A stretch of DNA of 64,000 nt from Antitrichia curtipendula (lineage: Eukaryota; Streptophyta; Bryopsida; Hypnales; Leucodontaceae): NCBI GenBank assembly GCA_951230915.1, contig OX579639.1, forward strand, positions 24,800,001 through 24,864,000, read 5' to 3'. This document shows, one piece after another, positions 32,158 through 52,715 of this stretch. The position numbers were made by a program, and so were the translations under genes. Below the pieces are notes generated by a model that did not search any database, was not told where the DNA came from, and saw nothing but the letters and a program-made list of their open reading frames with translations. How positions within the stretch are numbered: position 1 is the stretch's first letter; each line of letters starts with the position of its first letter.

Positions 32158-32445
32158 CAGGGTTGTCCAGATGTCCGAACACCCTGGACGTCCGGATGTA
32201 CGTCCAGAGTCCCAAGACGTTGGCCTCCGGACGTACGTCCAGAGTCCCAGGACGTTGGCCTCCGGACGTCCCTGGGCATTCAGACGGACCCCAACCCCCC
32301 GTCCAGTGGATGGTCGGACAGGGGGTCGAGAGGTCGGACGGGCCTTCGGGACGTCCGAGGTCGGATAGAAATGTGGACGCTTCGTCGGAGGTTGGACGGG
32401 CTGGAGGAAAGTCGGACGGGAGCGGGCGTCGGACTGGCGATTTTT
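32158..32445 (+). promoter_or_regulatory. Left subterminal motif array of the hAT element
   Basis: GC-rich zone starting at the terminal repeat. It has GGACGTCCGGA, two copies of a ~45-bp unit with GACGTTGGCCTCCGGACGT, and further in GGTCGGACGGG and AGTCGGACGGG. I count two exact TCGGACGG octamers and several near matches. Subterminal repeats of this sort are bound by transposase in known hAT elements; binding here is inferred. Confidence 0.65.
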
Positions 32446-32464
32446 TTCTTAAATAAATATTTTT

Positions 32465-33164
32465 TCAAATTGAAAAGCCTTTAAGGTATTCAATTTCAAA
32501 AAGAAATGGGTAGAATAGGAAACTAAATACTCTCTAGGGTATTGAATTTTTTCTAAAAATGGGAAGAATAGGAAATCGAATACCCCAGTTGGTATTGAAT
32601 TTTTTTTTAGAAAAAGGTGGAATAGGAAATTGAATACCTTGTAGGGTAATCAAATTTTTTTTAAATGGGTTGAATAGGAAATAGAATACCCTACAGGAAA
32701 CTCAATTATTTTTGAAAAATGGGTAGATTAGAAAATTGAACATCCTCTAGGGACTAGTGTATTGAATTTTAAAAAAAGATGGGTAGAACAGGAAATTGAA
32801 TACCCTCTTACCCTCTAGAGTATTCGATTTTTAACCCAAAATGGGTAGAATAGGAAATGGAATACCCTGGAGGGTACTAAATTTAAAAAAATGAATCAAT
32901 AGAGTAGGAAATTGAATACCCTCTAGGGTGTTCAATTTTTTTTAAATGGGTTGAATAGGAAATTGAATACCCTAGAGGAAATTCAATTTTCTTTTAAAAA
33001 TGAAGAGAATAGGAATTTGAACACCGTAGAGGATATTCAATTTTTTTTTAAATAGGTAGAATAGGAAATTGAATACGCTCTAGGATATTGAATTTTAAAA
33101 ATAAAATGAGTAGAATAGGAAACTGAATACCCTGAAGGGTATTCAATTTGGAAATAAAATGGGT

Positions 33165-33206
<42 letters not shown>

Positions 33207-33675
33207 CCTCTACTCCTCTAGGGTATTCATTTTTTTTCTTAAATGGATGTTTCTTCAAATCCAATACCCTCAAGGATATTCCATTTTGAAAAAAAACTAG
33301 ATAGAATACATATTGAATACCCTAGATTCCTAGAGGGTATTCAATTTTTTTAAAGAAATGGATACAATAGGAAATTGATTATCCTAGAGGGTATTCAATT
33401 TTTTTTTTAAATGGGTGGAACAGGAAATTGAATACCCTAAAGAAGTAAAGGGTATTCAATTTTTTCAAAAAATGGGTACAATAGGAAATTGAATACCCTA
33501 AAGAAGTAAAGGGTATTCAATTTTTTCAAAAAATGGGTACAATAGGAAATTGAATACCCTAAAGGGTATTGAATTTTTTGTTAAAAAAGGGTAGAATAGG
33601 AAATTGAATACCCTAAAGGGTAGAATAGGAAATTGAATACCCTAAAGGGTATTCAATTTTAAAAAAAAATGGGTA
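32465..33675 (+). repeat. ~50-60 bp minisatellite with a palindromic core
   Basis: Some twenty units share GGGTAGAATAGGAAATTGAATACCCT followed by AGGGTATTCAATTTTTTT, so each unit contains a GAATACCCTnnAGGGTATTC hairpin. Unit length varies through the A/T run. A (TA)n microsatellite interrupts the array at about 33,168-33,202. Near-identical units at 33,420-33,560 suggest recent expansion. Non-coding. Confidence 0.85.
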
Positions 33676-34030
33676 GACATTACTGAAAACCTAAATATAA
33701 TGTATTCTATTTGCATTGTCCTATTACATGCATGTTCATATGACAATTCATACAACTTCTCACAGAACCTTATCAATCCAACATCCATCAACAAGAATTT
33801 ATGCATTTTTGGTTAAAGCGGTTTATGTATTTTATATAAAAAATGATGGAGAAGATATACAATTTCCGGACACTATAGAATCCAAAATGTACATCCAATT
33901 GCATATAAATTGGTATATACTGGAAATGGAAAATAATACTATTTAGGCCACATGGTCCACAAACGTAAATCCTCAATTCTACGTATTTCCAAATACTTCT
34001 ACAGTTCTATAGTCTATATAGTATGCTCAA
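33676..34030. other. Spacer downstream of the kinase-like gene
   Basis: AT-rich sequence with short frames only. It would contain the 3' end signals of the minus-strand gene to its right; none is distinctive. Confidence 0.3.
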
Positions 34031-34033
34031 GTA

Positions 34034-35510
34034 CTAATATGAATGTCGGAAGTGTTCATCTGGTATTGGCCAATTGTAAGAATTGGTAAATCGATTGGTA
34101 ATTTCAGCCAAACTACCTCGTGAACTGTTGTCTTCATTGCAAAGTCGCTCCAAGTATTGATGAAACACCATTGCCAAATCCTCATGGCTAAACTTTGTAT
34201 GTCTTTGGGTTTCCCGGTGTAACTTGTGGTAGGCCACTGACATGCACTGTTTGTTGATCTTCTGAGCTATTCGACCTACCACATATTCCTCTGATTTTCG
34301 TGATAAATTGGGAATGACTTCCACATCTGCAATTCTCTTATGCAAATATGCAATATTGGGGTCTACCCACCACCTCCTTCGCAAAGCTTCTTCCTTCTCA
34401 CCCGCAGATGTGAACGTGTACAAGGATTTGGGTGCTTCGCTACTTACAGAAGTCAAGCCCCAATCGCAAACTCCAATGTAGACTAGGGACTCGTCTTCGG
34501 GAAAGTGAAACATGATGTTGTCCGGGGAAATATCATTGTGGAGATGTCCAACATTGTGCACTGCATTCATGATGTGCAGCAATGCCCATGCAAGCTCCGT
34601 GCGCTTCCTCCTCCAACGAGCGAGACGGAAAGCTCGAATCACCTCTTCGGGATCAGCGTTTGCACAAGCCAAAGCAATACCTATGTTGTCTGGATATTGT
34701 ACATCCAAGTTCAACATTTGCCGCAGTATTCCGCCGTTCCACCAGTATGAATACCCATCGTTGTTTGTTGCATGCACTGCATAAAATCGTATGACTCCAT
34801 CATGTGGAATCCTCACTGCCATTGACTCGTTTTGGTGTTCCAATTTTGCGAGTTTTGGTTGTATACCATGTTGGCGAGATACCTTTGATGCAAACTCCCA
34901 AAATACGGGTATCCCAGGACATCCTTCAATTCGGACCCTACGAATTGTTGCATATCCGCCCATCATGACTTTGTCATCTTGTGCAATCACCCTTGCTGTT
35001 TCTGGAAGTGCTACGAGATGCCGTCGCCCCTTCTGCAATTCCGCCATTCCCTCAACGCTCTTCCACCAAAACACTGACCCTTGCCTATTCCGTGAATTAG
35101 CAAATGGACGGCACCGTTGAATAAATAAGTCTGCCTTGAGAATGACTTGCTCGAAGTCTGCATCCTGTGCACGGTAGCTCTTGCTGAATTTTTCTACAAT
35201 CACTTTGGCATTCCAAAATGCATCGTTCACCCTGTTCGCCAAGAATTTGTTGAAGCGCGGTTTGTCCATCTCATGCCTCCATTGCGGAACGTTCAGTGCT
35301 TCTAACATCTTCTGCGTCATGTCGTCTTTGAATTTTTGAATGCATTCCTCTTGATATCCAAGGACGTGGTGGTTTCGGACTCATAAAACTTGACAGTAAA
35401 TTCGACCAAAAATTCTTTGCAAGCATCTGTGGATATTCCTTAGTTATCCTAGCTTCTTCATCATCTGACAGCACCCGCTTGCCTTTCCCTCCCTTCTTTG
35501 GCCTCGGCAT
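34034..35510 (-). CDS. Protein-kinase-like protein carried by the hAT element
   Basis: The main frame (35,320-34,034, 428 codons) has the marks of a protein kinase fold: a glycine-loop-like GGYATIRRVRI (residues 121-131), a candidate ATP lysine in FASK (K146), a catalytic loop HNDISPDNI (H261, D263, N268) and DWG (D286) in place of DFG. All core catalytic residues are present, so activity is plausible, although HND replaces the usual HRD. An upstream frame (ATG at 35,510) adds a basic, nuclear-signal-like start (PRPKKGGKGKR). It overlaps the main frame at about 35,271-35,400 and must join it through a frameshift or small intron. The closest subfamily is not recognised. A TCGGACGG array lies about 260-590 bp upstream. 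Substrate and function are unknown. Confidence 0.65.
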
Positions 35511-35727
35511 CTTGCTGAACTGTACTATCAATGAATATTCAAAAGATGAAATTGAACTCGGGATTTCACTTCAAATCAAAAATAATGCATACACCGTCAC
35601 GCCAAAACTGAAAAAAACAGCAATAAGGGGGCCCCTATAATCCGACTCTTGCCTTCCCTAAGAAAGGAGCCAATGGAGGATAAACCACCAAGCTCTCCGC
35701 TCCTCTTGTTAAACACAAGGGAGAAGG

Positions 35728-36115
35728 CAAGAGTGAGGGCGGTCGGGCCGTCCACCACTCTTATACTTGTCGGACGGCCTTCTCGGCAGTCGGCCCGATT
35801 CTCCGCCATCCGATCAGTCGGTCGCGACTCGGCTGTCCGATGAAGCCGACCGATCAAACGGCTGTAACGGGTATCGGACGGGGTATCGGACAGATTTTCG
35901 GACGGTTACAGGTTGGACGCAGCGGTTCTCGGATGAGTGGTTCAGACGGGTTTTGTGACAGTTCAGTCGGCCGGGTTGTCGGTCGGGGACGCAGAGGTTC
36001 TCGGACGGTTGTACCGGACGAGGTATCGGACGGGTGGTTCGTCCGGGTTTTGGAAAGTTCGGTCGTCCGGGTTCTCGGTCGGGGTCAGGGTCGGACGGGG
36101 TTCCTAGTGGGGACA
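35728..36115 (-). promoter_or_regulatory. TCGGACGG array upstream of the kinase-like gene
   Basis: GC-rich stretch with six exact TCGGACGG octamers (for example GGTATCGGACGGGTGG, TTTTCGGACGGTTAC) plus many CGGAC and GTCGG variants. It sits 5' of the minus-strand kinase-like gene. The sequence is like the element's subterminal zones rather than its AT-rich surroundings. Control of the gene by a shared binding factor is inferred. Confidence 0.6.
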
Positions 36116-36119
36116 GATT

Positions 36120-36670
36120 CAAACTACACATGTTAGAGGTCTAATACCAAAAAAAAAAAAAGAATATCACGGATGGAGTTCAAGATTATAATGTTTGACC
36201 ATGAGGGTGCTAGAACTGCTAAAATCTTTCAATCTTCTTCCATTGAAAGATAAATCTAAAAATTTGGTGACCAAAACAATATGAGGTTAAACTGTTAAAC
36301 AGTTAAAGGGCCTAATAGCCCTAACTTGTATAACCCCAATCAATTTATGGCTTCTTCAAATGTACTCCACAATTTTACTAAATGGATTTTGAATGTGAAT
36401 TTTCCTCCAAGATCTAGTATATTTGAGGCTCATTTTGAAGAGCTCTCAACAGAAAGGGAAGTCAAGATTGCAAATTTGCAATGGGTACCCTTGTACAAAA
36501 ACTTGAATAGAAAAACCTCTATCATTTATTTTCAAGATCGGACTTTTGTAGCTAAAACTAGACTTGTAGAAGAATTTTCTAAAAGTATGAACTATTAAAA
36601 ATAGCAACTTGGTTAGGTTTTATTGAACTTCAAAGTTCTGCAAACACCACATTTGTGTGGCTTTGGCATT
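36120..36670. other. Spacer with one unrecognised frame
   Basis: A plus-strand frame of about 90 codons (36,326-36,598) includes NFTKWILNVNFPPRSS and EELSTEREVKIANLQW. It looks more protein-like than chance, but has no motif I can name and no paralogue in this window. It is not called as a gene. Confidence 0.25.
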
Positions 36671-36674
36671 AAGG

Positions 36675-37260
36675 GGTTAACACTTGGAAAAAAATTGGAA
36701 ATGAATGACAAGTAGACTGAGAGCCCAAAAAAATGAGGAATGAACGACAAAAAAACTTGAAGCCCTAAAAATTGAAGAATGACTAACAAGATCAGAAAAC
36801 CCCCAAAAAATAGGGATGGCATGACAAGGAAAAAATAAGCCAAAAAAAAATTGGGAATGAACGACCAGGAAAAGGAAAGTCCGAAAACATGGGGATTGGG
36901 GAATGCATGACAAGACAACATAAAGCCCAAAAAATTGGGGAATTCATGCCAAGGGAACGTGAGGCCCAAAAAAATTGGGAATGAATGATCACGAAATAAA
37001 AAGCCCAAAAAAATGTGCAAGTTCATGACAAGGAAACATAAAGCAAAAAAAAATTGGAAAAGAATGATGGTCCTCTGAAAACAAATAAGGATGGGGAATG
37101 AATGATAATGAAACTTCAGATTTTTTGCGACAGGGTCTCTCATTTGTAGTCCAAGTACTGAAACTCCAGATTTAATAAAAATTGGGAATGAATGGAAAAG
37201 AAACTAAAAGCAAAAAACGTGGATGAAATGAATGATAATGAAACAGAAGCAAAAAAAGAA
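36675..37260 (+). repeat. ~30-60 bp minisatellite (TTGGGAATGAATGACAAG)
   Basis: Imperfect tandem units contain AAAAAATTGGGAATGAATGA, a [CA]AAGGAAA segment and AAAGCCCAAAA. Unit length varies. Open frames on the minus strand are hydrophobic products of the low-complexity repeat, not genes. Confidence 0.75.
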
Positions 37261-37777
37261 GAAGGGGAGGTAATATAAATCCACCACCAAAACTAGAACC
37301 AATACCAATTTCCGATAACATTATGCTTCGGATTTAAATGTGAAGTTTTCATTCACTCAATTGGGACTACAAGCATGATTCAGAATGTATGGACTATGTT
37401 TGGGGGGCACAATGTGATGCGTCAATCATTTCTTGGAAAAATAACTTATACAATGCATTTTTTGAGGTCAATACGGAAGTCATTATGTTCTTTGTTGGAG
37501 ATTTACATACGTTACTCAGTTGTAGAATGCGGACCGATACCATATGTATATTAAAAAAAAACATTGGTTATACAACAACGGTATTCAAGGAGAATACCAT
37601 CACATGGCTACCAATGTACTTCTATATGGACATAAAAACTTAATCCCGCTAACTTAGAAAATCAGGAACTGCAATTCCCCAACATCACTGTACAATGCTT
37701 GCCGACAACAACAATCCACGGCCATTACAATCAACGGATAAGGTGCTCAGGCTTGCACTATAAGACAAAACACCGCT
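37261..37777. other. Spacer
   Basis: No gene is supported; AT-rich with short frames. Confidence 0.3.
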
Positions 37778-38856
37778 TCACTCTGAATCAGAATCGGTAT
37801 CATCTCTCTTATTTGGGCCTCTAGAACCACACCCATAAACACCAAGATATGGTCCTCCTCCGTAGGTGTCTCCCTGTCCACTTGGAGCCACTCCTTTTTC
37901 CGTTTTTTGTAATTTGGACAGTAAGGACCTCCAAAAGGAGGAGGAGGAAGAATGGGAACATTGTGCTGGGACCCTCTTTCACTTGAACCACCATAATAAG
38001 AACCTCCATGATGATGATATGAAGCAGGTGCAGTACTCCCAAGATAGTATTGGGAGCCACTTTGGCTAGCATCGTCATACCGCGTGCTTTGAGAGCCACT
38101 TTGGGATGCATTACCGTATTGTGAACTTCTTCCTGAATCTTGTGGGGCACGTGAACCACAGTCAAGGTGGTGCGATCAGTCATGCCCATGTTGTCGACCA
38201 CGGTCCTCCACGCTACGACGCATTGCCTCTCGCATCTGTTCCTCGTACTCAATGTCTTCGTGAGCTTCTCGCCGTTCGTGTCTCTCTCCAAATGTCACAG
38301 GTGCTTCAACATCGGGAACATCATCGTCATCCAAAACATCATCCTCTAAGTCAGGCAACACAACCGACGGTGTTCCAGAATGTCCTCGATTGGACCACTC
38401 TGGCAAGCAATCGCTCGCTCCAACCCAATTGGTATAAATCATGTGCTGTCGGTGATTCAGAGTTTTTACATTTTTCCCATACACTGTTTTCCAATCTACG
38501 TCTTTGTGGAGTACAATCTCCGCCCACACCATGGCCATAGTCGAATAAGTCATGACATTCGTTTTCGACATTGGTAAACCACATGCCGATAGAATCTCTT
38601 CGTACCGGCGAACAAAATGGACGCTACTGCACGTGGTCATTTGCTCTTCCCAACGTCGAGCTTGTACCTTCGCACGAGCACGTGACCACAATTTGGAGAT
38701 GTGTGTCATTTTCACATACTTTTTGCACGTTGTGCAATCCCACACTTTTTTGGGCTCTTCTTGCCATCCCGGCTCCGCTACGCAAAGAAGATTTTCCCAT
38801 TCTGCCCAATTCATCTCTTGTGATATTCCCTTCGGTGCACTTTCCCCGCGTGGCAT
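37778..38856 (-). CDS. hAT-element accessory protein with Cys/Trp-rich N-terminal domain
   Basis: The ATG at 38,856 opens a 226-codon frame. It starts MPRGESAPKG, then WAEWENLL, a CTTCKKYVKMTHISKLWSRA motif and VHFVRRYEEILSACGLPMSK, and ends in an acidic Asp/Glu segment. The CKKYVKM...KLW...PMSK...VDW block is shared with the gene starting at 43,617, so the two are paralogues. It may be a DNA-binding domain of Myb/SANT or trihelix type; that is inference. After the stop at 38,176, another frame encodes a Gly/Ser/Gln/Tyr-rich tail (DASQSGSQYY, HHHGGSYYGG). A third ends in RGPNKRDDTDSDSE at 37,778. Two frame changes, by indel or intron, are therefore needed. A TCGGACGG array lies upstream. Confidence 0.55.
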
Positions 38857-39139
38857 GGTAACTTTGATTACATTTTTAGGAGTCGATTTTAGAATTTTAA
38901 TTGATTTTTTCAACACATCCGTGCAATGCTATGAAGTTAGAATGTGGATGAAAAAAGGGGACTTGCACATTATAAAAACAACTTAGTTTCGATTTTCAAA
39001 ACTTGACTTAGGACTAACAGCACCTCAATCTCGAACCACAGGCCACAGCTATTCACACACCAAGCTGGAAGGGGCGAGCAGAATCCCGAAGGCGCTGGAT
39101 CAGCCCACTCCGCAAGGGAAACGATTGTGAAAAGTGAGC

Positions 39140-39460
39140 CGACCGACGCGCCCTTAAATGGTCGGACTGGGCGTACGTCGCTCTAGACATCGAACGGCTC
39201 TAGGTTCGGACACCCAAATTGGACGGCCACGAAGCTCCGGATGTCCAATCGCATGGCCACGGATGGAAGGTGGACGACTCAGGGATCGGAAAAATCGGTC
39301 GGAGCGACCGACCAATCGTCGGACGGGGCAGCGGGCGGTCGGCAGCAACTTCGGACGACCATAATCATGCCTCGTCGGACGGCTTCATTTCGGACGCCAG
39401 AAGGTCGGACGGCTCCAGTTTCGGACGCCCAGGTGGTCGGACGGCGTTCTGATCAAATGG
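39140..39460 (-). promoter_or_regulatory. TCGGACGG array upstream of the accessory gene
   Basis: Four exact TCGGACGG octamers (39,330-39,450, for example TCGTCGGACGGCTTC and GGTCGGACGGCTCC) with related TTCGGACG and GGTCGG variants. It lies about 300-600 bp 5' of the minus-strand ATG at 38,856. Composition matches the other arrays in the element. Confidence 0.6.
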
Positions 39461-39485
39461 CGTGGATATTGGGGCAGGAAAAAAG

Positions 39486-39867
39486 CAGGGTTGTCCCCAT
39501 CACGTCCTGTTAGTCCGTCAGGATTCAACCCCGGCGTCCGTCAGGATCCAAAAAAAAAAAAAAAAAATTTTTTTTTTTTTTTCTTGTGGACAGTCTGACC
39601 GTCCTGTGGACAGCCGGCCGTCCCCAAAAAAAAAAAAAAAAATTTTTTTTTTTTTTGTGGACGGCTGGTCCGTCCCTGTGGACGGCTGGCCGTCCCTGTG
39701 GACAGACAGTCCGTCCAGGTCGACGGACAGGCCGTCCTTGAAAAAAAAAAAAAAAAAAAAACTTTTTTGATCCTGACGCAATTTTGACGCGTCAGGACGC
39801 GTCCGGACTGACGCCAGCGGACATCCGGACGTGAAAACCCCACGTCACGTCCGGATAGACAACCCTG
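39486..39867. mobile_element. Nested 382-bp non-autonomous hAT element
   Basis: Starts CAGGGTTGTCCCCATCACGT and ends CGGATAGACAACCCTG, the same 10-bp terminus as the 20.6 kb element. The flanking 8-mers GAAAAAAG (39,478-39,485) and GGAAAAAG (39,868-39,875) match at 7 of 8 positions. The inside has two long A-run/T-run palindromes (about 39,550-39,580 and 39,625-39,655), a later A-run, and GTGGACGGCTGGCCGTCC repeats. It has no coding capacity. It is presumably mobilised by the same transposase family. Confidence 0.85.
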
Positions 39868-39875
39868 GGAAAAAG

Positions 39876-41150
39876 GGGGAGTTTTAAGGTAAAATAGCCT
39901 ATTATTGTTAATTTTCCAACTCAGAGAGTAGACCAGCCCAATTCCGTCACCTCATTTTGTCCATAAAACATCCAAATCTGTCCACAAAACATCCACTTTC
40001 ATTCGTCTTATGACAGAAATTAAAGCGTTCTATGATAAAATCTGATTTTTTATGACAACAAGGGATAATGTGTCACTCTATTAATGGTCAATATTTTGTA
40101 CTTGACTTGGGCGGTTATGGGTTCATTAGGGAACGTTTATTTCTGTAGTCTACTGACGGTTTTGTAATTTCAGTCCAATTACTTCAAAAATTTATAGAAA
40201 TTACAGTTTTAATTGAAAAATTATAATTCCACTTGGGTTTGATTCGTGAAACAAGCACACACCTCTGAAAAATATGTACCACTATTGAAATTGGCCCCAA
40301 GATATTCAGATTGCAAGTCAGGGGGGTGATAGGTAGTTTTACCTTAATTCAAACTGCATTGATGCCAGAGGGAATTATGATTTTTTGAACCTCCTGTAGA
40401 TTCCTTTCCAAAGCTATGTTGGAAGAACCTGAAATTATTTTCAGAAATTGAACCCTAAATCCTAAACTCTAAACCCTTGACCTGGAATACGTTTATAATA
40501 TTCATTTGTTCAGAGTATGTGATGATGTCAGTTCATGTAAAGAATCTCTACGCACACTACTGAATTGTGTAGGCACATTTTGAAAGCTTCCATGCATACA
40601 AGTCTATAACTCCTAAAGAATTTGGCAAACATTTAGAGTTCAAACTTGTACTTATGCAAGCTTGTTGAAGTTTAAAATTTCTAATTTTATATTAAAATGT
40701 GATGATTAACTCCTATGCAATCCCCGTTTTAGACTTTTAGTGTTTTCTTTAAAAACATTGCATCACAAATGAACAATTGTCTGTCAAGTGTCGTAGAATT
40801 GTACATGATGAACATGTCCAAATAGAGGGGCATTTAGAAGCTCAGAGAGACAACTTAGTTATTCTTGTAAAAGAAATGTGGATCAACCACATTCATGCAC
40901 AAAAAGTGGGTATCCTTATGAAATTAGTGACAACACCATAATAAGGAGGCATACGGGTATTCTTACTTCTTTAGGAAAAAACATGACTTTACGTTAGACT
41001 GTAGTGGGAAAAAAAATTGGATATCCTTATGAAATTAAAGACGACACCATAATAAGGGGGCATATGGGATAATGGTTATTCTTATTTATCTAGGAAAACA
41101 CATAAATCAACGCCAGACCATATTGAAAAAGAAATGATTGGATATCCTTT
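39876..41150. other. Non-coding spacer in the hAT element
   Basis: No gene is supported. A diverged duplication of TGGATATCCTTATGAAATTA-like text occurs at about 40,910-41,150 (with ACACCATAATAAGG). Otherwise unremarkable AT-rich sequence. Confidence 0.4.
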
Positions 41151-41930
41151 TTAAAATCATTGTGGCTTTGTTTCGGTTTCAAATGGAAAAATTTAAATCA
41201 CGATGGCTTGATTTTGGTTTGAAGTAGCAAAATTGGCTTGAAATGGCAATATATAAATCATCGTGTCTTGATTTGAATGTGAAGTACCCAAATCTAAATC
41301 ATAGTGGCTTGGTTTTAGTTTCACGTACCAAAACTTAAATTATGTTGCCTCCATTTTAATGTGAAGTAGCAGAAATTAAATCATGGTTACTAGATTTTGG
41401 TTTCAAGTGGGAAAATTAAATCATAGTGGCTTGATTTGAAATTGAAGTATCAAATTTAAATCATGTTGGCTTGGTCTTAGTTTCACGTAGCAAAATTCAA
41501 ATCATGGTGTCTTGATTTTAGTTTGAAGTAGCCAAATGTAAATCATGGTGTCTTGATTTTTGTTTGAAGTAGCAAAATTTAAATTTTGGTGGCTTGATTT
41601 TAATTTGAAGTAACAAAATTTAATCAAGGTGTGCTGATTTTAATGTGAAGAAGCAGAATTTAAATTATGGTGTCTAGATTTGAATGTGATTTAGCAAAAT
41701 TAAATCATGGTGGCTTGGATTTATTTTTAAGTAGGTGAATTAAATGAAGGTGGCTTCGTTTTATTTGTGAAGTATCCAAGTGAAATCATGGTGGCTTCGG
41801 TTTTAATTGAAGTGCACAAAATGAAATAATGGTGCCTCCATTTACGTTTGAAGTATTAAAATCAATTCATTTAAACTTCGTTCTAATTTGAAGAGATCAA
41901 ATGAAAATCATATCATGGTCGCACTCTAAA
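41150..41930 (+). repeat. ~45-bp minisatellite (AAATCATGGTGGCTTGATTTT)
   Basis: About seventeen imperfect units contain TAAATCATGGTGGCTTGATT followed by TTGGTTTGAAGTAGCAAAA. Units differ by substitutions and 1-3 bp indels, so the array is old. Non-coding. Confidence 0.85.
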
Positions 41931-42149
41931 TTTCATTTATCCGCCCCCCCCGCAAAAAAATGAAAAAAGAAAAAACGTCAAGCCAAGGCATGATTGTACA
42001 TGAGTAGCAAATATTATTTACATGTGGAAGGAGCAGGTGTCCAATCTTGAGGGTTTCGAATGGAGAATTTTGAGTTTAGAGCATAAATGTTTGTAGTTGG
42101 ATGGTACTACAAACATCCTCCTTCTAAACTCGAGATCACCCCTTCCAAG

Positions 42150-42390: not shown

Positions 42391-42392
42391 TA

Positions 42393-42802: not shown

Positions 42803-42965
42803 TACTCGGGTTGACCTTTGATGTTGCAAGTTCATGAGTTCATGATTTTTTTATCTCCTGATTTTAGCAGCCGTCGTCGCATTGGATGCTTGTTTCATGA
42901 ATAATGGGCCTTGGAAAAGGATCCTAAGATCACTGAATCTTATATTTATATACTTCCAGAAACCT

Positions 42966-43400
42966 GATCGGACGGCGAGTCGAACGTTGGTTGGACGAAG
43001 ACCGACCGATCGTCGGACAGTGGGTCTTGAACGGCGCTTCGGACGGGGGTCGCAAGCGGCATCGGACGGCTGGTAGGAGTGTAGGACGGGCCATCGGACG
43101 GCCGGTTGGATTGGGCATTGGACGGGGGTTTAGGTCGGGGAATCGGACGGCAGTCCCAGAGCGACCGTCGGCGTCCGACAGCCGGCCGTAATCCGCTTCG
43201 AGTTCGGACGGCTAGGTTCGGAGGTCGGACGTCTCGGTCTGGCGGTCGGACGGCGTGCTGCCCGTCCCACCCCAAAGCGGTCGGCATCGGTCCATCCGAC
43301 AAACCTCAGGTCCGGGGACGCTTCGCGACGTCCGGGACAGGTTCGGTACCGGACCTGACTTAGGTCTGCCGTCCGAATGCTATAAGGTCGGACGGGATGT
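42966..43400 (+). promoter_or_regulatory. TCGGACGG array upstream of the RING-type gene
   Basis: The densest array: eight exact TCGGACGG octamers (for example GCATCGGACGGCTGG and GCGGTCGGACGGCGTG) with many GTCCG/CGGAC variants. It lies about 220-650 bp upstream of the ATG at 43,617. A pyrimidine tract (TTCTTCTCTCCTCTC) follows it and may mark a transcript leader. Confidence 0.6.
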
Positions 43401-43616
43401 TCATTGTTCCTCACTTCTTCTCTCCTCTCAGAGGTATTAGAACCGTGTCGGATGTTCTGCTCTTGCTTCACCGCGCGAGCTGCTCCTACATGGTGGAGAG
43501 TTGGGGTCATTCATTTTTCATAACGACATACGCTCTTTTTTCGATTGAAATACACGTGGTTCGAGGGGGTCACTTTCAGTGATTTTTGAAGCGGTTACAA
43601 ATTCAAAGCGACAGTC

Positions 43617-46600
43617 ATGAGCGGTGAAGTTGTTGCGGATATTGGTAGGATGAATCGAGGGGCGGAAAGCAGTAAGAAAACTAAACGGAAAGGGGCACCC
43701 CACGGGCTCCATTCAGAGATTACGGACGACCCTAACATCAAAGCGGAGCCAGATTGGGAGAAGGAGACTGCGGAATATTGGAACTCCAGGATGTGCAAGA
43801 AGTATGTAAAAATGTACCACATCAACAAGTTGTGGCCCAAGGAGTCCCATGCCGCTCAGACGCATGATTTTAGTTGCAAGCCATGGACTTGCAACGACTA
43901 GCATTTTAAGGAACGATCGTTGGAGGTGTGGAAGACACTCTTTGGGGACAAACCAATGAGTAAAGGGTACATAAACTACAGCTTGGCCTCCATGGTGTAT
44001 GTAGAACTCCAATTAGCCCGGAAGGTGGATTGGAGCACGTTTCCAACGACAGCCAAGGAGCCACTGCATCTTAATCGCAATCAAAAAGATATTCCGGATT
44101 TGTACAATCCACAGGTAGGGCCAAAAGAGACACCAAAACCAAGAAGAGTATTAAAAAATACTTTAGTGCCGCAGACAATCATCTCTAGGGGCCCAAGCGA
44201 TGCATTACCGTTGGCTTCTACGCAGACTCCAACAACAGTGAGTCGTGCCTCCTTGGGAGATCCGGAGGGAGAGGTGTTTTTTACTCCTCCAACGGCTTTG
44301 ATGTGCACACCGAACGTAGAAACCGTGATTCCAGTAAATATGGTTCTGAACAAGCAGAACGTTCTAAGCGAACGTGGGGGCCATTTTTCGCGACGAGAAC
44401 ATGAGCAGGACCCTAGACCGGAACAAGTCGCAAGGGCCTATGCTACAATTGATAATCTTTTAGAGAGCAATGCTCTAGATTCCTTGACACATGTACCTTT
44501 GAACCCAGACGAGACAGGGTCGCCGAGCCCAATATTGAGCCCTCGAGATCAATGGCGTCGGTCAATAAGAAATAAAGCACCAGCCCATGATGTGACTCGG
44601 GATTCCACCATTCATGGCGATGACATTGCGAGCAAGTATCCAGGAGTGTCAGCTATTCCTCCCTCGCAATTGGAGATTCTCCGTCACATGCCAAATCTGA
44701 AGGAATTGGAAGCCTTGGTGCAGTGCTCTGCTCGATGGAAGGAACTTCACATAGGGATAAGCCCATTCGTATCAGATGCTGAGGCGGGCAGCTCTGATAC
44801 TTTTCCTAAACCCGACACAAGGTGGGAGGCGTTTGCCAGAACCGCTGTCTCATTGACCACAGCAGCGGGGATGGTGCAAGAAATGTCCCCGAAGGTTACG
44901 GAATTTGCAGAGGAATTGGCCAAAGTATCGCCTGAACTGATCATTGGTGCCGTGGCTTTCATGAAGTACACGCAGGCTATATTACCATTCCTTGACAACA
45001 AGTACAAAAAGCTGAAAGACTTGGTTGCTCTAGCAAAAGAAAATCAGACGTTGAGGGCCTTGAACGATTCCAATGACAACTGGAAGGCACAATGTGATGA
45101 ATTGAAAAAGAAGTACGAAAGGCTACAGAGGATCCATGAGTGCTCATTTGAGTAGCCGATGAAGGATATTCCAGGGTTGGTGCCCATAACACAAGAGGTG
45201 CAAGAGACTCAAGAGAGTGATCAACTCTCTCTTCCTTTTGAAAAAGATGCAGCTGTGGAGGGCCACAAGAGCAAGGAAGTAAACCCTAAAACCGCCATTT
45301 GTAATCCTACTCCAACATTGCAAGATGCTTCCATGCAAACGGAAGGAAGTGAGGTCGAAGAATTGAAGCAAAAATTGGATGAGGCGACCAAAGAGAATGC
45401 CCATGCTTGGTCTGAGGTGGTGCGCTTGAAACAAATAGTGTGGTTGGATAGCAACATGCCATCGGGCAGTGCGGACTCTCGGATGGTTGGCATGGGTACA
45501 GAAGCTCGAAGACAAATCGACCGTAGTAACCCGAGCAATGAAAAGGCTCCTGAAATTAGCAATGAAGTCAGAAGATGAATGCAATGCCGTGGAGAGCTCT
45601 TTTTGGCGACTGAAACAGATGTTTGAGGCACATCCGAGGGGGTCCACCGACATTACGTATTGGGGAGACATGGATGCAATGTTTGAGCGCTTGAACCACG
45701 CAAATAACAACCAGCATCCCCACATCAATTGGACCTTGGAAGCAGAGGAAGGATGGGTCTCTTACAACACGTTTTCAGCACACATCAAGAAGAATGAGAA
45801 GGAAGTCGTGCACGCTCATGATCCTAACGTCGGAATCATGGAGGGCAGGTGTAGCATTTGCCTAAGTCATACTGGTCCGGAAGGAGCCCTAATAATGGAT
45901 CAATGCCGCCACATTTTTCATGTCACATGCATTGTCAAAGCATCTCTCATTCAATCACGGTGTCCCGAGTGTAAAACTCCTTTCTGTCCAAGGTTCTATG
46001 AAATGCTTGGGATCTCAGAAAGTATGCCCCCCGGCCACAAATACAATCAATGGAACCTTCCACTTGACCAAGCGCCATACAAATTTCAAAATTACATGCA
46101 TTGGGGAAAACCTATAACGCGGAATTCATTAGACCAAGTGCACGACCTAACCAAGGCGTCTTCATGTGAAAATGATCATTACGTGTGGATGACCAAGGAC
46201 AGAGAAGTGGAGTTGCGGGCCAGAGGTATTGAGGATGACGAGGCTCGTGAAATGTTTTGTCGCAGCATGGGAGGACATTGGAGCATGCAACACAAGAAAT
46301 TCTTCCGATTTCCGGAAAAAGAGGTGCGTAAAGATGGAGATGGCAATTGGATAGAACAAGAGCATGCTCAAGAGTTCCATGAGCAATACTCGGCGTACAA
46401 TCACACTTTGATAGGTAGGCCCTTCTTTTGTCCAAGTTGGAACAATCCGCAGAAGTTCGTGCTTTTGTGGAAATAGATGTAATGTCAACTGCAGGGCATT
46501 ATTATGTGGACGTGGCAAGGGAATTTGATAAGAGGGTGGGCGACATCATAAGTGCATGGAGGGTGTTTCTAATGGGAGGAGATCGACTTGCATGGTTATA

Positions 46601-46904
46601 CATGCAAGATGATGATGCAATGGTCAACGCCTTGGTCCGTCGAGTGGATAGTGCACTCAAAGCATTGAAGGCAGGGGAAGTGGACTTGTCTCCCAAGCGG
46701 AAGCAAAAACGGAGGTTGGAAGACGACGATGACCACTCTCCAGAAACAAAACGACAGTTTGGCCTCATTGACTTGGAAGCTAGGTCCGCAGGGCCCACCG
46801 TTGGAACAAGTCTTGTGCATACGCCTCGCCGCAGAAGTGTAAGACTCATGGGTGATGAGGGTCCCTCTCGTGTATCGGGGGAACGTAGCGGTAATAATAT
46901 ATAG
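43617..46904 (+). pseudogene. Large accessory protein: shared N-terminal domain + coiled coil + RING-H2 (broken)
   Basis: Five consecutive segments read as one ~1,090-codon product. Segment 1 (43,617-43,901) carries CKKYVKMYHINKLW, the domain shared with the gene at 37,778-38,856. A TAG at 43,899 falls where the paralogue has Val, and the same frame resumes with HFKERSLEVW, then PMSK and VDW. Segment 2 runs to another in-frame TAG at 45,153. It ends in a coiled coil (KYKKLKDLVALAKENQTLRA, about 44,990-45,145). Segment 3 runs to about 45,470, where the frame shifts. Segment 4 (to 46,476) holds a RING-H2 finger at 45,850-45,972 (CSIC, CRHIFHVTC, CPEC). A last frame change near 46,440 gives a tail with a basic KRKQKRR signal to 46,904. 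RING-H2 proteins are usually E3 ubiquitin ligases; targets are unknown. The two stops make this copy a likely pseudogene. Confidence 0.65.
45850..45972 (+). other. RING-H2 finger coding segment
   Basis: The spacing C-x2-C-x14-C-x-H-x2-H-x2-C-x10-C-x2-C fits the RING-H2 consensus with all eight metal ligands intact. It is unusual to find this domain in a hAT-element-encoded protein. Confidence 0.85.
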
Positions 46905-47269
46905 TGCCGGTGGCCTTTTTTTGGAATAGGGTAGAATTGCGTGGAGTGTTGTTTGGATCTCAGGAGAATGTAGTACCACTAAAGCAATGTACCCATGGTA
47001 TTTATGAGTTTCTTTTAATATAAGATTATGTGCAGAATGCAAATATGTTTTGATTTGCTAAGAGTTTATGGTATTTTGTGCTATCCCTTTTGGACAATTA
47101 TGTGATTTGCGTCCTTCTATTACAAGTTACTTTTTTGTCACTGATGGATGAATTCCTAAATGCCAGGATACATGCTTGGTAGATTTTGTAGTAAACTTGT
47201 TAATGTGTAGAATAGGGAAAATTTCAGAATTTTTCACCTTGTAAATTACAAGGTATTAGATTTGTAATT

Positions 47270-47760
47270 GCTGAAAAAAACTTTTTCAGGCGCAGCCAAA
47301 AAAAGGGCCGCTGCACTTGACAAGGTCGCATTTAAATGGAAAAATGTCCAAAATGGTGGTTACTCCTTAAATTAATTCTTGAAACCAATTTGGATACATG
47401 CTTGAAAATTTTCAGATCATTTGGAATTGTACAACATATATGAAAAAAATAGGAAGACGCAAGAAGTAGAGGTTGGTTCAAAACACTAAATTGAAAAAAA
47501 TATAATTATGCAATTGAAAAACCTCAATCCCAACGATTCTACTGTTGCCCTAAACAATGTACCTATTTTGCTTTAATTTTTTCCAAAAACTATTAAAAAT
47601 TGAGTTAAATACAAGACTTCAAAGTTTATTTTACAATAGCAAATCCATAATTGCCCGCAAAATAGAAAACACTTTGTAATTTCCATCTCAAAAATCAAAA
47701 TGGAATAAGTAAAAGCTTTTTACGTATATATAAATCAAAGGAACCAATTTTAAAAGTATA
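47270..47760 (-). repeat. Dispersed ~0.9 kb repeat, inverted partial copy
   Basis: Its reverse complement aligns with the right half of the blocks at 1,965-2,870 and 3,950-4,870. Shared text includes CACCATTTTGGACATTTTT, CTCTACTTCTT, TATGTTGTACAAT and TAAACTTTGAAGT. It sits between the RING-type gene and the transposase gene, so the family also inserted into the hAT element. Confidence 0.65.
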
Positions 47761-48130
47761 TTTTAGTGTGCTAACATGATTTTTAGTTGTCCATCTCACG
47801 TCCAATCCCAAGAAAAATTTGTTTCCTAATTTGTCAAATATAATGGGCATGAGAAGTACACATATATTTTTTCAAATTTTTTCAATTCATATGCAATTTG
47901 ACACTAGAGATCAGTGTGCATATTAATAATAGTAATAAGCTAAAACATTGAACACGTCTACGGTTTGATTTTGGAAAACAAACAATTTCCTTGAGTGTGG
48001 AGAACATACAATGCGCCAACTATAACTCCATAAGTCTATGCTCTTTTTTCACAAGCTAGATACTCTAGATAGGGCCTTAGGCATGTAAGGATCAAGCCCT
48101 TGAGACTTGAGCCCTTCACTTTGTGAACCC
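47761..48130. other. Spacer
   Basis: AT-rich; no gene seen. Confidence 0.3.
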
Positions 48131-48134
48131 AAAC

Positions 48135-48415
48135 AGAAATCGGTCGATTCGACCGATCGTCCGACTATCGGACGGAGAGGCCATCCGACCTGTGCACCGC
48201 CGACTGACCGTCCGACGTTCGGACAGAGAGCCCGTCCGACCTATGCACCGCCGACCGACCGTCCGACATTCGGACGGAGAGCCTGTCCGACCTGTGCAGC
48301 GCCGACCGAACTGCCGACCGAATTCCGAACCCTATCCGACCGATCGTTGGGATAGTCCGACACCGTTCGACCCCGTCCGACTCTATGTCCAACAGTCCAC
48401 CTGACCGTTGGGACC
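48135..48415 (+). promoter_or_regulatory. TCGGACGG array upstream of the transposase gene
   Basis: Six exact octamers (two TCGGACGG, four CCGTCCGA). They are partly arranged as about three tandem ~57-bp units with GACCGTCCGACnTTCGGAC, GGAGAGCC and GTGCACCGCCGACC. It lies about 320-540 bp upstream of the ATG at 48,712. Autoregulation by the transposase is an inference from the shared motif at the element's ends. Confidence 0.6.
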
Positions 48416-48711
48416 GAAATAATGTTCTTCATTCCCTGTTCGACGGTCACTAGCAACCTCAAAACTATAAATTCCAGACCCTTGCCATTTGCAAGCACTC
48501 TTGAGAAACTAAACGCTTTGATTTCCAAGGGCTAGGTTCCGACCCATTTTGGGTCCCTTGCTTGGTAATGTATAGTTCAGTGGACAGGGGGGCCTTGGTT
48601 ATCAAGGCTTTGTGCACACATTGTGTGTCTTGTTTTTGACAAAATTTATCAACCCGTTACTGCGTTACTTTTACAATTTCATTCGAATATAAACAATCCG
48701 AATTGGTCACT

Positions 48712-51229
48712 ATGAGCAAGGATTGGTCTTGTTGGTATGGTACCCCATCAGTTGGTAAAGTGGAATGCAAAGCTTGCAAATTGGTGTTCGCGAGGAAAAC
48801 AAGCCGTTTGTTTAGCCATCTAGGATATAAAGGTGCATCAGGTTTGAGAGATAACGGAATAAGCCTTTGTTTGAAGTTGACATCTCAAGTTCAAAATCTA
48901 TTTCTTCGCTGCAATGGAGATATACCACGAAAATCTACAGGAGACAATGTGGATGGCAATGGCATGCTTGTGGTCGCCAATGATCTTTCAAGTGGGAGGC
49001 AGACGTCTCTTTGTACACAAGAAGACTCGTGCACAGCACAGCAACAATCCTTTCGTGCGGCCTCTGATGGAAATCCAAATACACAAACATCAAGCGAATG
49101 TGACACTGTGCGGGGATCAAGCAATAGGCCGCAGAGGCAGAGCAGGCTATCGGATGGATTTGAGACGGCCAATAAATGGATTCTAAATGCAATCAGGGCC
49201 AAATTCTTTTATGCGGCCAACATCCCATTTGTTGTAGCTCGAAATCCAGCATTCAAAGAAGCAGTGAAGAAAACAGTTGAGTTTGGTAGGCCCTACATCC
49301 CGCCATCGTACAATGATATACGCAATAAATTGCTTGACGAAGCAAAGGCGGAGGTGCAGACAAATTTACAGAAGAGGACCAAAGACAGCATTAGAAAGTT
49401 CGGAGCAACGTTGTCCATTGATGGATGGAGCTCGACCGGAAATCGGCCATTGATAAATGCCATGCTAGTGTCCTCTGCGGGGGAGCAATTCCTAGGAGAA
49501 GTGGATACGACTGGGGCCGATAAGAACGCTACGTATTTGGCCGCTCTCCTAGAGAAATTCATAGTCCAAGTGGGCCCTCAAAATGTGGTGCAAGTGACTA
49601 CAGATAATGCGCCTGTGAACCCCGCAGCATGTGCTCTAGTGATTGCTACATACCCACACATTTTTTTCCAAGGTTGCGCGGTACACGCCTTGAGTTTGTT
49701 GCTAAAAGATTGGGGAAAACAAGCATGGATAATGGACCAAGTGGACAATGCGGAAACCGTAGTGAAGTTCTTCAAGATGAGGCATAAACCGCTTGCAATA
49801 TATCGGAAGTATGAGCCCAAGTATAGCTTGTTGATGCCGGGTGAAACAAGGTTTGCCTCCAATTTCATCACAATTGCACGTTTGTTGCAGGTGAAGGGTC
49901 CAATGCAACAGACAGTGACGGACCCGCAGTGGAATGAGTACGTGAGGAAGTTTGGCCGGACATCGAAATCTCGCAGTGACTGTCGAGAGGTATTTAAGAT
50001 ACTTATGAGCGAGCATTTCTGGCGCCGTTGTCAGAATTTTAAGGACTTGGTGGGTCCTGTTGTGCATGGGCTACGTGATTTGGATGCGAAGACGCCCTGC
50101 ATGGGCAAGGTTTTGCACATTATGAGAAATCTAGAAAAACACGTCTCCGGTTTGGTTGGAGAGCCTTTTTGTTTGAACAAGGCTCTTGCCGATCCACTGC
50201 TGGCGTATTTTAAAGACCGACGCAAAATGGTAGAGACCAATCTGCATTTTGCAGGAGCTCTTCTGAATCCCTACCTTCTAGAAGACAAAGAATTAGCCAA
50301 CGATCCTAAATGCGATAGAGGCATGCAAGCGTGTTCTCATGAAAATTTGTAAACCAGAAGATTACGCCGCGGTTGTGAAGGAGTTTGTCGCTTTTTGACT
50401 TAGGGAACCGCCATTCCACAACATGTTGGAGCCGAGTGAATAGCAATTGTCGGCACATGCTTGGTGGGATTTTGAAGGCGCGTGTGGAAAGCTCATTGCT
50501 CCAATTGCCAAGAGCATTTTGGCACAATTGGTCTCCTCTTCTTCGTGTGAACAAAATTGGAGTAGCTATTCTTTTGTTCACAACAAATCTAGGAACAAGT
50601 TGAAGCCACAGAGAGCAGATGATTTGGTGTACGTGTATACCAATTCAAAAGTCTTAGCCCAATCCAAGGAAAGGGATGAGAAAAAATGGTATCAGGAGAA
50701 CGTGCTTTTTGAAGATACAGATATGCCTATCTCCGAAAATGAGGATTCGGAAGATGGCGAGCCCGCATTCGATGATGGAGGTGCTATGGACAACGACATG
50801 CACAATTCGGATGCTGAAAATCATGAGGCTGCATTTTATGATGGAGATGCTGTGAACTATGATGAGCCGATTTCGAACGATGAGCCGTTTCAAAGCCCTA
50901 ATCAGAATGATGAAGATTTGGGAGCCAATGATCGAGACGTCTACGATTATATATCAGATGAAGGCAATCGTGGATGTGATGAAGAGAACCTTCCGATAGC
51001 CAAATATATGGATGGGACCGGGTTGTTGACTAGCGAAAAGATTTTAGCGGATAAGGAGGCAATCAATGTACGAGATGCAGCAATAAATGGGGCAATGCTT
51101 ATCAATGGTGGGACTCCTAAAATGGGGGAAGAGATTCCAATTCCCGACTCTCCATCCACGGTAGCGGCACGAGCGGAACAGATTGACAAAGACAATGACA
51201 AAGGCGGATTGGGGGTAAGGTCCCAATGA
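48712..51229 (+). pseudogene. hAT transposase (BED finger, DUF659 core, hATC), broken copy
   Basis: ATG at 48,712 (MSKDWSCWYG). An N-terminal BED-type zinc finger has C19, C22, H36 and C53. The catalytic core is DUF659-like: D237 in SIDGWSSTGNRPL, D298 in TTDNAP and C322/H325 in GCAVHALSLLLKDW, matching the hAT DDE core and its CxxH. The first frame stops at 50,352. The coding sense moves to another frame near 50,315 (ACKRVLMKICKPEDYAAVV), with in-frame TGA (50,396) and TAG (50,441). It then continues through the hATC dimerisation region at about 50,460-50,660 (SSSCEQNWSSYSFVHNKSRN). A long acidic tail runs to 51,229. In hAT elements this enzyme cuts and pastes the element with 8-bp duplications. 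The frameshift and two stops imply this copy is inactive unless spliced differently. Confidence 0.8.
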
Positions 51230-52065
51230 ATATGGGGAACACAAGGGTTCAATTGAAAGCGGTGTTCTCGAACAAGAAGAGTGGTGAACCAAGGATTGAG
51301 AATATCAAACCACGTGAAGTAGAAGAGAATGAAGACATGCGTTTTATGAAGTTTGGGAGTCCAATCCTAGCCCGGAATGGAAAAGGAAAGGAGCCACTTC
51401 TGCGAGATCCCCAATTACCACCGCGTACTGGTCTTGCACCGGGTGTACGTACACTACTTACAACTGCTAGTACAACTTTGGATGGTTGCGGAGGTTCATC
51501 ATGTGGAAAACGGCAATTTATTAATCACAGTCTATCCATTTCATCATGTAGTGATGATGACAAGGACGAGACGTTGGCTCAAATGTTCGCTCAAAAATCT
51601 AGGCATTCATCACAAGGTCTTCTCAAATCAGCAAATCGTATACCGCAGTCCTTGAGCGCAACAAAGGTAATCATTCAAGGAGGCAAAAAAGCAAGACAAT
51701 TAGTTGTGAAAGAGTCTAAAATAGACAAAAAAAAAAGAGCAATAGAGCCTTTTGCTATGTCTCCTTCAAAGAAAGCGAATGTGAGTAGAACCCCCCTAGA
51801 TGCACTTCAGCCTACTCCGATGACGAAAATAAAACTGGTCACCGACCTTAGGAAAAGCATTGGAAAGTCCATATTACAAGTGAAAAAGGAGGGTAAAGCA
51901 TTTAGATCACGTAAATCTAGGGAAGTACATGGTTCCGGAGTGAGAATTCTACAATCTTCATCAGACAATATGGAAGAGGCATCCAGCGATGAAGACACCG
52001 GATGGAAAAGAAGAGGTGAGAGTAGCGGGGCTGAAGTGAAGGGAGACAGTGATTACAATCCTTAG
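51226..52065 (+). CDS. Basic/serine-rich C-terminal extension of the transposase gene, or separate small gene
   Basis: A 280-codon frame opens at an ATGA overlap with the end of the previous frame (51,226). The product is disordered-looking: Lys/Ser-rich with basic patches (KKARQLVVKESKIDKKKR, SPSKKANVSRTP) and an acidic SSDEDTGWKRR end. No domain is recognised. Its position, same strand and overlap suggest it is the frameshifted C-terminal tail of the transposase, which would extend the protein about 400 residues past hATC. An independent ORF is the alternative. Confidence 0.45.
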   Translation: MNMGNTRVQLKAVFSNKKSGEPRIENIKPREVEENEDMRFMKFGSPILARNGKGKEPLLRDPQLPPRTGLAPGVRTLLTTASTTLDGCGGSSCGKRQFINHSLSISSCSDDDKDETLAQMFAQKSRHSSQGLLKSANRIPQSLSATKVIIQGGKKARQLVVKESKIDKKKRAIEPFAMSPSKKANVSRTPLDALQPTPMTKIKLVTDLRKSIGKSILQVKKEGKAFRSRKSREVHGSGVRILQSSSDNMEEASSDEDTGWKRRGESSGAEVKGDSDYNP

Positions 52066-52480
52066 GGACTGAAGGGATGTAAACCTAGATGTCCAAATAC
52101 TTATGATACATAGATGGCACTATGTGGCAATCGATTGTTTATTGCCGCTTCATTGTAGTAAACTGATGTTTGGAATACCATTAAGGTTTTGGGGTTTCCA
52201 ATACAAAGGACAAATTCAATAAAATTTGATTTTGTGCATTTTATTGTAAATGGAGCATGACATTCTAAAATGTAATTGTACAATGCAACAATTTTGCCTT
52301 CAAAGTCGTCTAAGTTCTGTGCATTTTGAAAATAAAAAGAACGCTTACACTGAGTGTCATTTCCACATTTTTCAATGACAAATGCAATTGAAGAGGTTTT
52401 AAAACCAGATCTTCCTAACCCTAAAACTCATTTGCAGAAGTTAACTAGCTCTCACCACCCAAAAATCCTCCATTATAACT
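52066..52480. other. 3' region of the transposase gene
   Basis: AT-rich sequence, probably containing the transcript end; AATAAAA-like text occurs (for example near 52,330). No gene. Confidence 0.35.
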
Positions 52481-52489
52481 GCCTGTCTA

Positions 52490-52715
52490 CTGACGGTCCC
52501 GTCCGACCGAAAAAGCGTCTAACATAATACGCATCCGATTGGCCGTCGGAGAGACCGACCGACGGCGCGTCCGACCGACGCCCGGCACCCGACCGACCGA
52601 CGCCCAACGACTGCCGATCGCCGGACGCCGTCTGCTGCGTCCAGTATGTCTGCTACGTCCGGACGTCCGGATTTTGGACGTGATTTTGCCCTGGATGTAA
52701 AATGTGACAACCCTG
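52490..52715 (-). promoter_or_regulatory. Right subterminal motif array of the hAT element
   Basis: Contains CCCGTCCGACCG, several GACCGACCGACG units, GGACGTCCGGA, and the terminal GACAACCCTG. It has one exact CCGTCCGA octamer and several near matches. It mirrors the left subterminal zone, where GGACGTCCGGA and GTCGGAC motifs also lie within 300 bp of the end. Confidence 0.65.

What the first reader, a model, noticed from the sequence alone, without database searches (positions are those of the whole stretch)
32158..52715. A 20.6 kb hAT-type element carrying three non-transposase genes
Seen: CAGGGTTGTC / GACAACCCTG ends, flanking 8-mers TTCCATGA and TTCCGGGA, and a hAT transposase gene inside. 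Also inside are a kinase-like gene, a Cys/Trp-domain gene and a coiled-coil/RING-H2 gene. Known: hAT elements make 8-bp duplications and normally encode only a transposase in a few kilobases. Inferred: a cargo-bearing hAT lineage whose extra genes help mobility or modify the host. The two mismatches in the duplication suggest age.
Basis: partly seen in the sequence, partly recalled or inferred. Interest (0 to 1): 0.92.

Follow-up and report, generated by a model that had tools for sequence, protein, structure and literature searches.

The report
Four-gene 20-kb hAT transposon in moss
A jumping gene in a moss genome carries, besides its transposase, three other genes (a kinase, a zinc-finger-like protein and a RING protein), with the same short DNA signal near its ends and in front of each gene, so it looks like a small self-regulating parasite rather than a simple transposon.

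Summary
The 20,558-bp element at 32158-52715 is real. Its joined flanks match 38 other loci across the junction, i.e. empty sites; three were read and hold one octamer copy (TGCCGGGA twice, TGCTGGGA once). Six other copies, chosen by kinase-transposase spacing, were read: 5 have perfect 8-bp duplications, one lacks a recognisable right end. Exact 17/16-mer ends pair up 22 times (median 20,139 bp); 22 of 22 bracket at least two of the four genes, 11 all four. A second subfamily, 59-70% identical in all four proteins, keeps the set in another order. The host is a moss, by homologues. In 7 of 7 copies read, TCGGACGG arrays lie upstream of every gene and near the left end, with one site at the right end in 6 of 7. 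The one subfamily II island read favours GCGGACG. Best reading: a multi-gene hAT whose genes form one regulon, an element-coded factor probably recognising the motif; VANC-like anti-silencing is plausible but untested. None of the seven copies read has all four frames open.

The parts
32150..32157 (.). left 8-bp target-site copy TTCCATGA (mutated)
   Evidence: three empty sites read TGCCGGGA, TGCTGGGA, TGCCGGGA
32158..32167 (+). left terminal inverted repeat CAGGGTTGTC
   Evidence: the 17-mer of better copies occurs 33 times in the genome, control 0
32334..32419 (.). left-end motif island (TCGGACGG x2)
34034..35510 (-). kinase-like gene K (497 aa from the first ATG of the 517-residue open frame in other copies; frame shifted near 35380 here; start placed by eye)
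   Evidence: Pkinase E=2.5e-05, below the curated cut-off; 94 genome matches; frame of copy A
35770..36098 (.). motif island upstream of K (TCGGACGG x6)
37778..38856 (-). Cys/Trp-domain gene W (356 aa from the first ATG in open copies; stop at 38176-38178 here; limits placed by eye)
39319..39444 (.). motif island upstream of W (TCGGACGG x4)
39486..39867 (.). nested 382-bp CAGGGTTGTC element, a later insertion; site empty in 6 of 6 other copies
42968..43395 (.). motif island upstream of R (TCGGACGG x9)
43617..46904 (+). coiled-coil/RING-H2 gene R, N-terminal domain shared with W; broken here (stops 43899, 45153; frame change)
   Evidence: zf-RING_2 E=1.2e-07; hhalign W versus R 99.7% over 144 columns; frame of copy A
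48168..48380 (.). motif island upstream of transposase (TCGGACGG x6)
48712..52065 (+). hAT transposase gene T (1,117 aa from the first ATG in open copies; frame broken near 50350 here)
52499..52506 (.). right-end TCGGACGG motif
52706..52715 (-). right terminal inverted repeat
52716..52723 (.). right 8-bp target-site copy TTCCGGGA (near ancestral)

Best explanation
SHOWN: a hAT-superfamily transposon of about 20 kb, with 10-bp inverted ends and 8-bp target duplications, has moved as one unit carrying a transposase (T), a protein-kinase-like gene (K), a small zinc-finger-like protein (W) and a large coiled-coil/RING-H2 protein (R). Every gene lies behind an array of one CpG-rich octamer (229-659 bp upstream of the start codons in the copy measured), which also occurs near the ends. 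INFERRED: an element-coded DNA-binding factor (most likely the domain shared by W and R, or the transposase) recognises the motif at ends and promoters. This would coordinate transcription of all four genes with transposition and probably counter host methylation of these islands. The kinase and the RING protein would modify or destroy host silencing or cell-cycle factors, or regulate the transposase.
For: Empty sites. Perfect 8-bp duplications in 5 of 6 non-window copies. 22 exact-end pairs, 22 with at least two of the genes, 11 with four. Family I order K- W- R+ T+ in 24 of 67 gene clusters; subfamily II order R+ T+ K+ W- in its 4 full clusters of 157. TCGGACGG 28 times in the window, all inside the element, shuffle mean 0.44; island order conserved in 7 of 7 copies; island-to-ATG distance 229-659 bp in copy A. 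GCGGACG 13 versus TCGGACG 4 in the one subfamily II island read. Catalytic kinase positions invariant in 22 of 22 homologues aligned, out of 53 found. W and R share a domain.
Against: No binding, expression or methylation data. None of the seven copies read has all four frames open: copy A has K, R and T open but a stop in W, and its R ends in a different tail from copy F. Copy A reads HNN where the kinase homologues read HND. Within family I pooled dN/dS is 0.52 (T), 0.60 (K), 0.74 (R), 0.80 (W) over 21 pairs of 7 copies, so constraint between copies is weak, as expected of decaying copies. 11 of 67 family I clusters show only one gene. The motif switch rests on one island. The W fold has no match in PDB, so DNA binding is a guess. 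The right end bears only one exact octamer.
Confidence: 0.6

Rival explanations
1. Passive capture: host genes were picked up by a hAT element (Pack-type) and amplified with it; the proteins do nothing for the element.
For: Many copies are pseudogenised (stops listed), and dN/dS between copies is 0.5-0.8.
Against: Two subfamilies only 59-70% identical keep all four genes despite different order and orientation. Kinase catalytic positions are invariant in 22 of 22 relatives aligned. One Ceratodon relative stands for a cluster of 126 member sequences (P0032), which suggests amplification in another moss. All four genes have the same motif island upstream.
Confidence: 0.1
2. The three extra proteins are transposition cofactors (end-binding, synapsis, or control of the transposase by phosphorylation and ubiquitination), not anti-silencing agents.
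For: Motif sites lie near the element ends as well as at promoters. W and R share a domain. Kinase and RING proteins could act on the transposase.
Against: hAT elements elsewhere move with transposase alone (recalled knowledge). The motif is denser at promoters than at the right end.
Confidence: 0.25
3. The islands are ordinary transposase-binding and promoter sequences recognised only by T (as recalled for Ac and Spm subterminal repeats); W and R do not bind DNA.
For: Subterminal repeats bound by transposase are usual in hAT elements (recalled). Motif sites lie near both ends.
Against: The islands also lie upstream of three non-transposase genes, and two proteins share a Cys/His-bearing domain.
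Confidence: 0.3
4. The ends belong to different elements and the genes between them are unrelated neighbours.
For: The 10-mer is common (2302 sites).
Against: Empty sites, perfect duplications in other copies, 22 of 22 end pairs bracketing at least two of the genes.
Confidence: 0.01

Closest known systems
hAT superfamily DNA transposons (DUF659 / Dimer_Tnp_hAT type)
   Same: transposase domains, CAGGG inverted ends, 8-bp target duplications
   Different: 20 kb instead of a few kb (usual size recalled), three further genes, motif islands at each promoter
hAT7 elements with TET/JBP dioxygenase in Puccinia (PMC12730594, abstract and passages seen)
   Same: hAT transposase plus an accessory gene thought to counter methylation; that paper also reports an alpha-kinase gene in IS3EU elements
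   Different: 7-bp duplications, a TET/JBP gene (none in the frames scanned here), fungi not mosses
VANDAL elements with VANC in Arabidopsis (PMC5735166, PMC10398659, passages seen)
   Same: multi-gene DNA transposon; family-specific short motifs in tandem arrays in non-coding and terminal regions; motif differs between related families; protein with conserved and variable regions
   Different: Mutator-type transposase (recalled); its proteins were not compared with W, R or K here; anti-silencing shown there, not here
ToxhAT (PMC12506042, abstract start in search listing only)
   Same: large (14 kb) transposon with cargo, hAT by its name
   Different: fungal; cargo is the effector gene ToxA

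Membership tests
hAT superfamily | hAT transposase domains | tested here: met
   DUF659 E=1.2e-31, Dimer_Tnp_hAT E=5.1e-10 in the copy A frame; both also in the window
hAT superfamily | 8-bp target-site duplication | tested here: met
   5 perfect of 6 non-window copies read, the sixth lacks a recognised right end; window 6 of 8, explained by the empty sites
hAT superfamily | short terminal inverted repeats | tested here: met
   CAGGGTTGTC / GACAACCCTG; one end or both differ by one base in copies B, E and F
hAT superfamily | catalytic acidic residues and CxxH motif | tested here: inconclusive
   DGWS, TDNA, CAVH and CERNW strings are present in the open frame, but their assignment is recalled and no solved structure matched by sequence
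hAT7 with TET/JBP | 7-bp duplication and TET/JBP gene | tested here: not met
   8-bp duplications; no TET/JBP family in the frames scanned with Pfam (not every frame of the element was scanned)
VANDAL/VANC | Mutator-type transposase (definition recalled) | tested here: not met
   hAT domains instead
VANDAL/VANC (works like) | family-specific motif arrays in non-coding and terminal regions | tested here: met
   the subfamily difference rests on one subfamily II island
VANDAL/VANC (works like) | element protein binds motif and causes loss of methylation | not testable with these tools
   needs binding and bisulfite data
Protein kinase superfamily (K) | catalytic Lys, Glu, HxD, Asn, DxG | tested here: met
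   K212, E231, D329, N334, D352, G354 invariant among 22 aligned of 53 homologues; roles recalled; Pkinase score below Pfam cut-off (24.2 versus 31.7 bits); copy A reads HNN
RING-H2 E3 ligase (R) | RING-H2 finger | tested here: met
   window zf-RING_2 32.3 bits, cut-off 27.3; two relatives score 26.9 and 24.4, just below it; ligase activity not tested

The most novel reading that the evidence does not exclude
A bryophyte hAT lineage that independently evolved a sequence-specific self-activation or anti-silencing system: a new Cys/His-domain family (W, and the N-terminus of R) reads a CpG-rich octamer placed near the ends and at every promoter. Protein and octamer co-diverge between subfamilies (TCGGACGG versus GCGGACG), with a transposon-coded kinase and RING ligase as effectors against host silencing.
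Probability: 0.35. Interest if true: 0.88.

Novelty: new variant of a known kind. Interest (0 to 1): 0.74.

Why it matters
hAT elements are the textbook single-gene cut-and-paste transposons (recalled). A four-gene hAT regulon with motif-marked promoters, whose copies differ by only about 0.02-0.03 at synonymous sites, would show that multi-gene, self-regulating DNA transposons arose outside the Mutator group, in mosses; an earlier survey detected no hAT in the moss Physcomitrella (PMC6027215, passages seen). It offers a new domain family to test for sequence-specific counter-silencing, and a transposon-borne kinase and RING pair that I saw described in none of eight literature searches (listings; open-licence library only).

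Tried and rejected
Rejected: two unrelated ends (empty sites). Rejected: fungal host (my first guess); of 53 kinase homologues the ones with an organism name are two from the moss Ceratodon purpureus and one labelled Bacilli MAG, probably contamination. Led nowhere: kinase relatives in viral contigs and in prokaryote genomes (none confirmed); fold searches with the model of a W relative (no match); the R model was poor (mean pLDDT 38.7) and was not used; search of T against solved structures (none). Not obtained: the genome-wide search for the subfamily II end CAGGGTTGATAG, so its second end and target duplication are unknown. The match lists are capped (76 of 1642, 94 of 1348, 150 of 1784, 117 of 1344 candidates scored), so gene sets per cluster, above all in subfamily II, are lower bounds, and single-gene clusters (11 of 67 in family I, 98 of 157 in subfamily II) cannot be read as genes living alone, nor as proof that they do not. 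In my tally I used 117 of 123 places and left out 6 short second pieces of split matches. For alignments I used 25 of 48 W, 7 of 7 R and 22 of 53 K homologues. Pairing of ends allowed up to 80 kb; 3 of 22 pairs are 39-66 kb long and may join ends of different elements or contain other insertions.

Full report
What was checked. The 10-mer alone is weak evidence: it occurs 2302 times in the 400-Mb assembly, though 7.5 times more often than its reversed control. So the insertion was tested directly. The flanks joined with one octamer copy match 38 other loci across the junction (81-90% identity; 40 of 61 candidates scored), 29 of them without any net length change, while the window itself matches only as two halves. 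The element therefore sits in another repeated sequence whose other listed copies are empty at this point. Three empty sites were read: TGCCGGGA, TGCTGGGA and TGCCGGGA, each with a single copy. TTCCGGGA agrees with TGCCGGGA at 7 of 8 positions, so the right copy is near ancestral and the left copy TTCCATGA carries further mutations.

Other copies. Seven copies were read in full, counting the window; the six others were picked because kinase and transposase matches lie about 14-15 kb apart. Five have perfect 8-bp duplications (TCACTCCT, TTTTTTAG, GTGGACAA, CCAGTTAA, CCGGACTG); for the sixth no right end was recognised. Lengths where both ends are known are 19,960 to 20,355 bp, and 20,558 bp in the window. 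The window is longer in part because a 382-bp element with the same 10-mer ends inserted at 39486-39867; that site is empty in 6 of 6 other copies. A test not tied to that choice paired exact 17-base left ends (33 in the genome, control 0) with exact 16-base right ends (38, control 1). It gave 22 pairs with median length 20,139 bp (3 of them 39-66 kb). Of these, 22 bracket at least two of the four genes, 19 at least three and 11 all four, in the same orientations. 38 of 38 right ends have at least one of the genes inward within 25 kb (24 the transposase), and 27 of 33 left ends have the kinase inward in the expected orientation within 12 kb; 5 of the 33 left ends have none of the genes nearby.

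The genes. In window orientation they are kinase (K, minus), Cys/Trp gene (W, minus), coiled-coil/RING gene (R, plus) and transposase (T, plus). Frames in other copies, stop to stop, are 517 aa for K and 1,141 aa for T (copy A), 380 aa for W (copies E, F) and 1,120 aa for R (copy A). None of the seven copies read has all four open: copy A has a stop in W, and its R ends in a different tail from copy F. The window copy is decayed in all four genes. K has a weak Pkinase match below the curated cut-off, but Lys, Glu, HxD, Asn and DxG positions are invariant in the 22 homologues aligned of 53 found; copy A reads HNN at the HxD site. R has a RING-H2 finger. W is matched by no Pfam family above cut-off. 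Its N-terminal domain, modelled on the relative P0065 (block pLDDT 80-93 over residues 21-130), has no similar solved fold by Foldseek. It holds invariant C48, C80 and H84 and a nearly invariant C45 in 25 aligned of 48 homologues, and is homologous to the N-terminus of R (hhalign probability 99.7%, 144 columns). The C-terminal tail of W is low in complexity and varies between relatives.

Two subfamilies. Listed genome matches fall into two groups for all four proteins: family I (mostly 88-100% to the window, three at 78-80%) and subfamily II (T 62-64%, K 68-70%, W 60-65%, R 59-63%). In family I, 24 of 67 clusters have all four genes as K- W- R+ T+, and 11 show one gene only. In subfamily II the order is R+ T+ K+ W-: 4 of 157 clusters hold all four, 98 show one gene only. 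The lists are capped at different depths, so these are lower bounds. The set has thus survived a rearrangement of the element and long divergence. The one subfamily II end that could be read begins CAGGGTTGATAG at C1:36769227 and runs through a CpG-rich island towards the W match at 36769806; its partner end was not found.

Motif islands. TCGGACGG occurs 28 times in the window, 28 of them inside the element, where shuffles of the window give 0.44. The sites form groups near the left end and upstream of K, W, R and T, with one site at the right end. The same layout holds in the 7 copies read, with 28 to 44 sites each (no right-end site in copy D, whose right end was not found); 2 sites fall outside an element in the flanks examined, about 49 kb. 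In copy A the islands lie 331-620, 334-581, 229-659 and 339-555 bp upstream of the K, W, R and T start codons. In 250-bp steps of copy A those with two or more sites of the shorter TCGGAC have 47-66% G+C and observed/expected CpG of about 1.0-1.5, the rest 25-54% G+C. In the subfamily II island GCGGACG occurs 13 times and TCGGACG 4 times, whereas the six non-window family I copies hold 43-59 TCGGACG and 1-4 GCGGACG over their whole length.

Mechanism. Transposition as a unit is shown. Coordinated expression through the islands is inferred from their position. Which protein binds is unknown: W and the N-terminus of R are the best candidates because they share an unknown Cys/His domain, and T is the other. 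The closest working parallel is VANDAL/VANC, where a transposon protein binds a family-specific motif arrayed in non-coding and terminal regions and causes loss of methylation (PMC5735166, PMC10398659, passages seen). A kinase and a RING protein would suit an attack on, or control of, host or transposase proteins; this is conjecture. Against it: no functional data exist, and dN/dS between family I copies is only 0.52-0.80.

Known or new. It meets the tests of the hAT superfamily that could be made. It is not hAT7 (8-bp, not 7-bp, duplications, and no TET/JBP in the frames scanned) and not VANDAL (hAT, not Mutator transposase). A large cargo-bearing hAT element and accessory genes in fungal hAT elements are known (PMC12506042, listing; PMC12730594, abstract and passages), so this is a new variant of a known kind. 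Eight searches of the open-licence library listed no moss element of this make-up; most subscription papers are not in it. A 2026 review of gene capture in plants (PMC13317346) has no hit for hAT, moss, bryophyte or kinase. The host is taken to be a moss because the kinase homologues with a plausible organism name are from Ceratodon purpureus (50% and 43% identity); the species is not known to me.

Noticed in passing
window 39486-39867: Nested 382-bp non-autonomous element with the same 10-bp ends and 7 of 8 matching flank octamers; inserted later than the host element. Counted by eye, 11 +/- pairs of the 10-mer within 1 kb stand among the first 100 places listed, so small derivatives look common.
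   Followed up: partly
window 31858-32157 and 52716-53023: The sequence into which the element jumped is itself a repeat with at least 38 other copies, 30 of them on contig C5; its nature is unknown and no Pfam family matched the two flanking frames scanned.
   Followed up: partly
contig C5 of the assembly: C5 (9.3% of the assembly) holds 16 of 47 family I kinase and 20 of 49 family I W matches. It may be a repeat-rich chromosome, perhaps a sex chromosome; not tested.
   Followed up: no
window 54886-58763, minus strand: Open frames that by eye look like a SWIM/MULE-type transposase (recalled pattern); no Pfam match.
   Followed up: no
window 32504-33651, 36688-37068, 41238-41870: A+T-rich tandem arrays (54/61-nt, 39-nt and 41-nt units) in non-coding parts of the element; role unknown.
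   Followed up: no
P0059 and P0069: An R and a W relative are each listed with a longest contig of 17,649 bases from the same source, which suggests one foreign contig carrying both; not verified.
   Followed up: no
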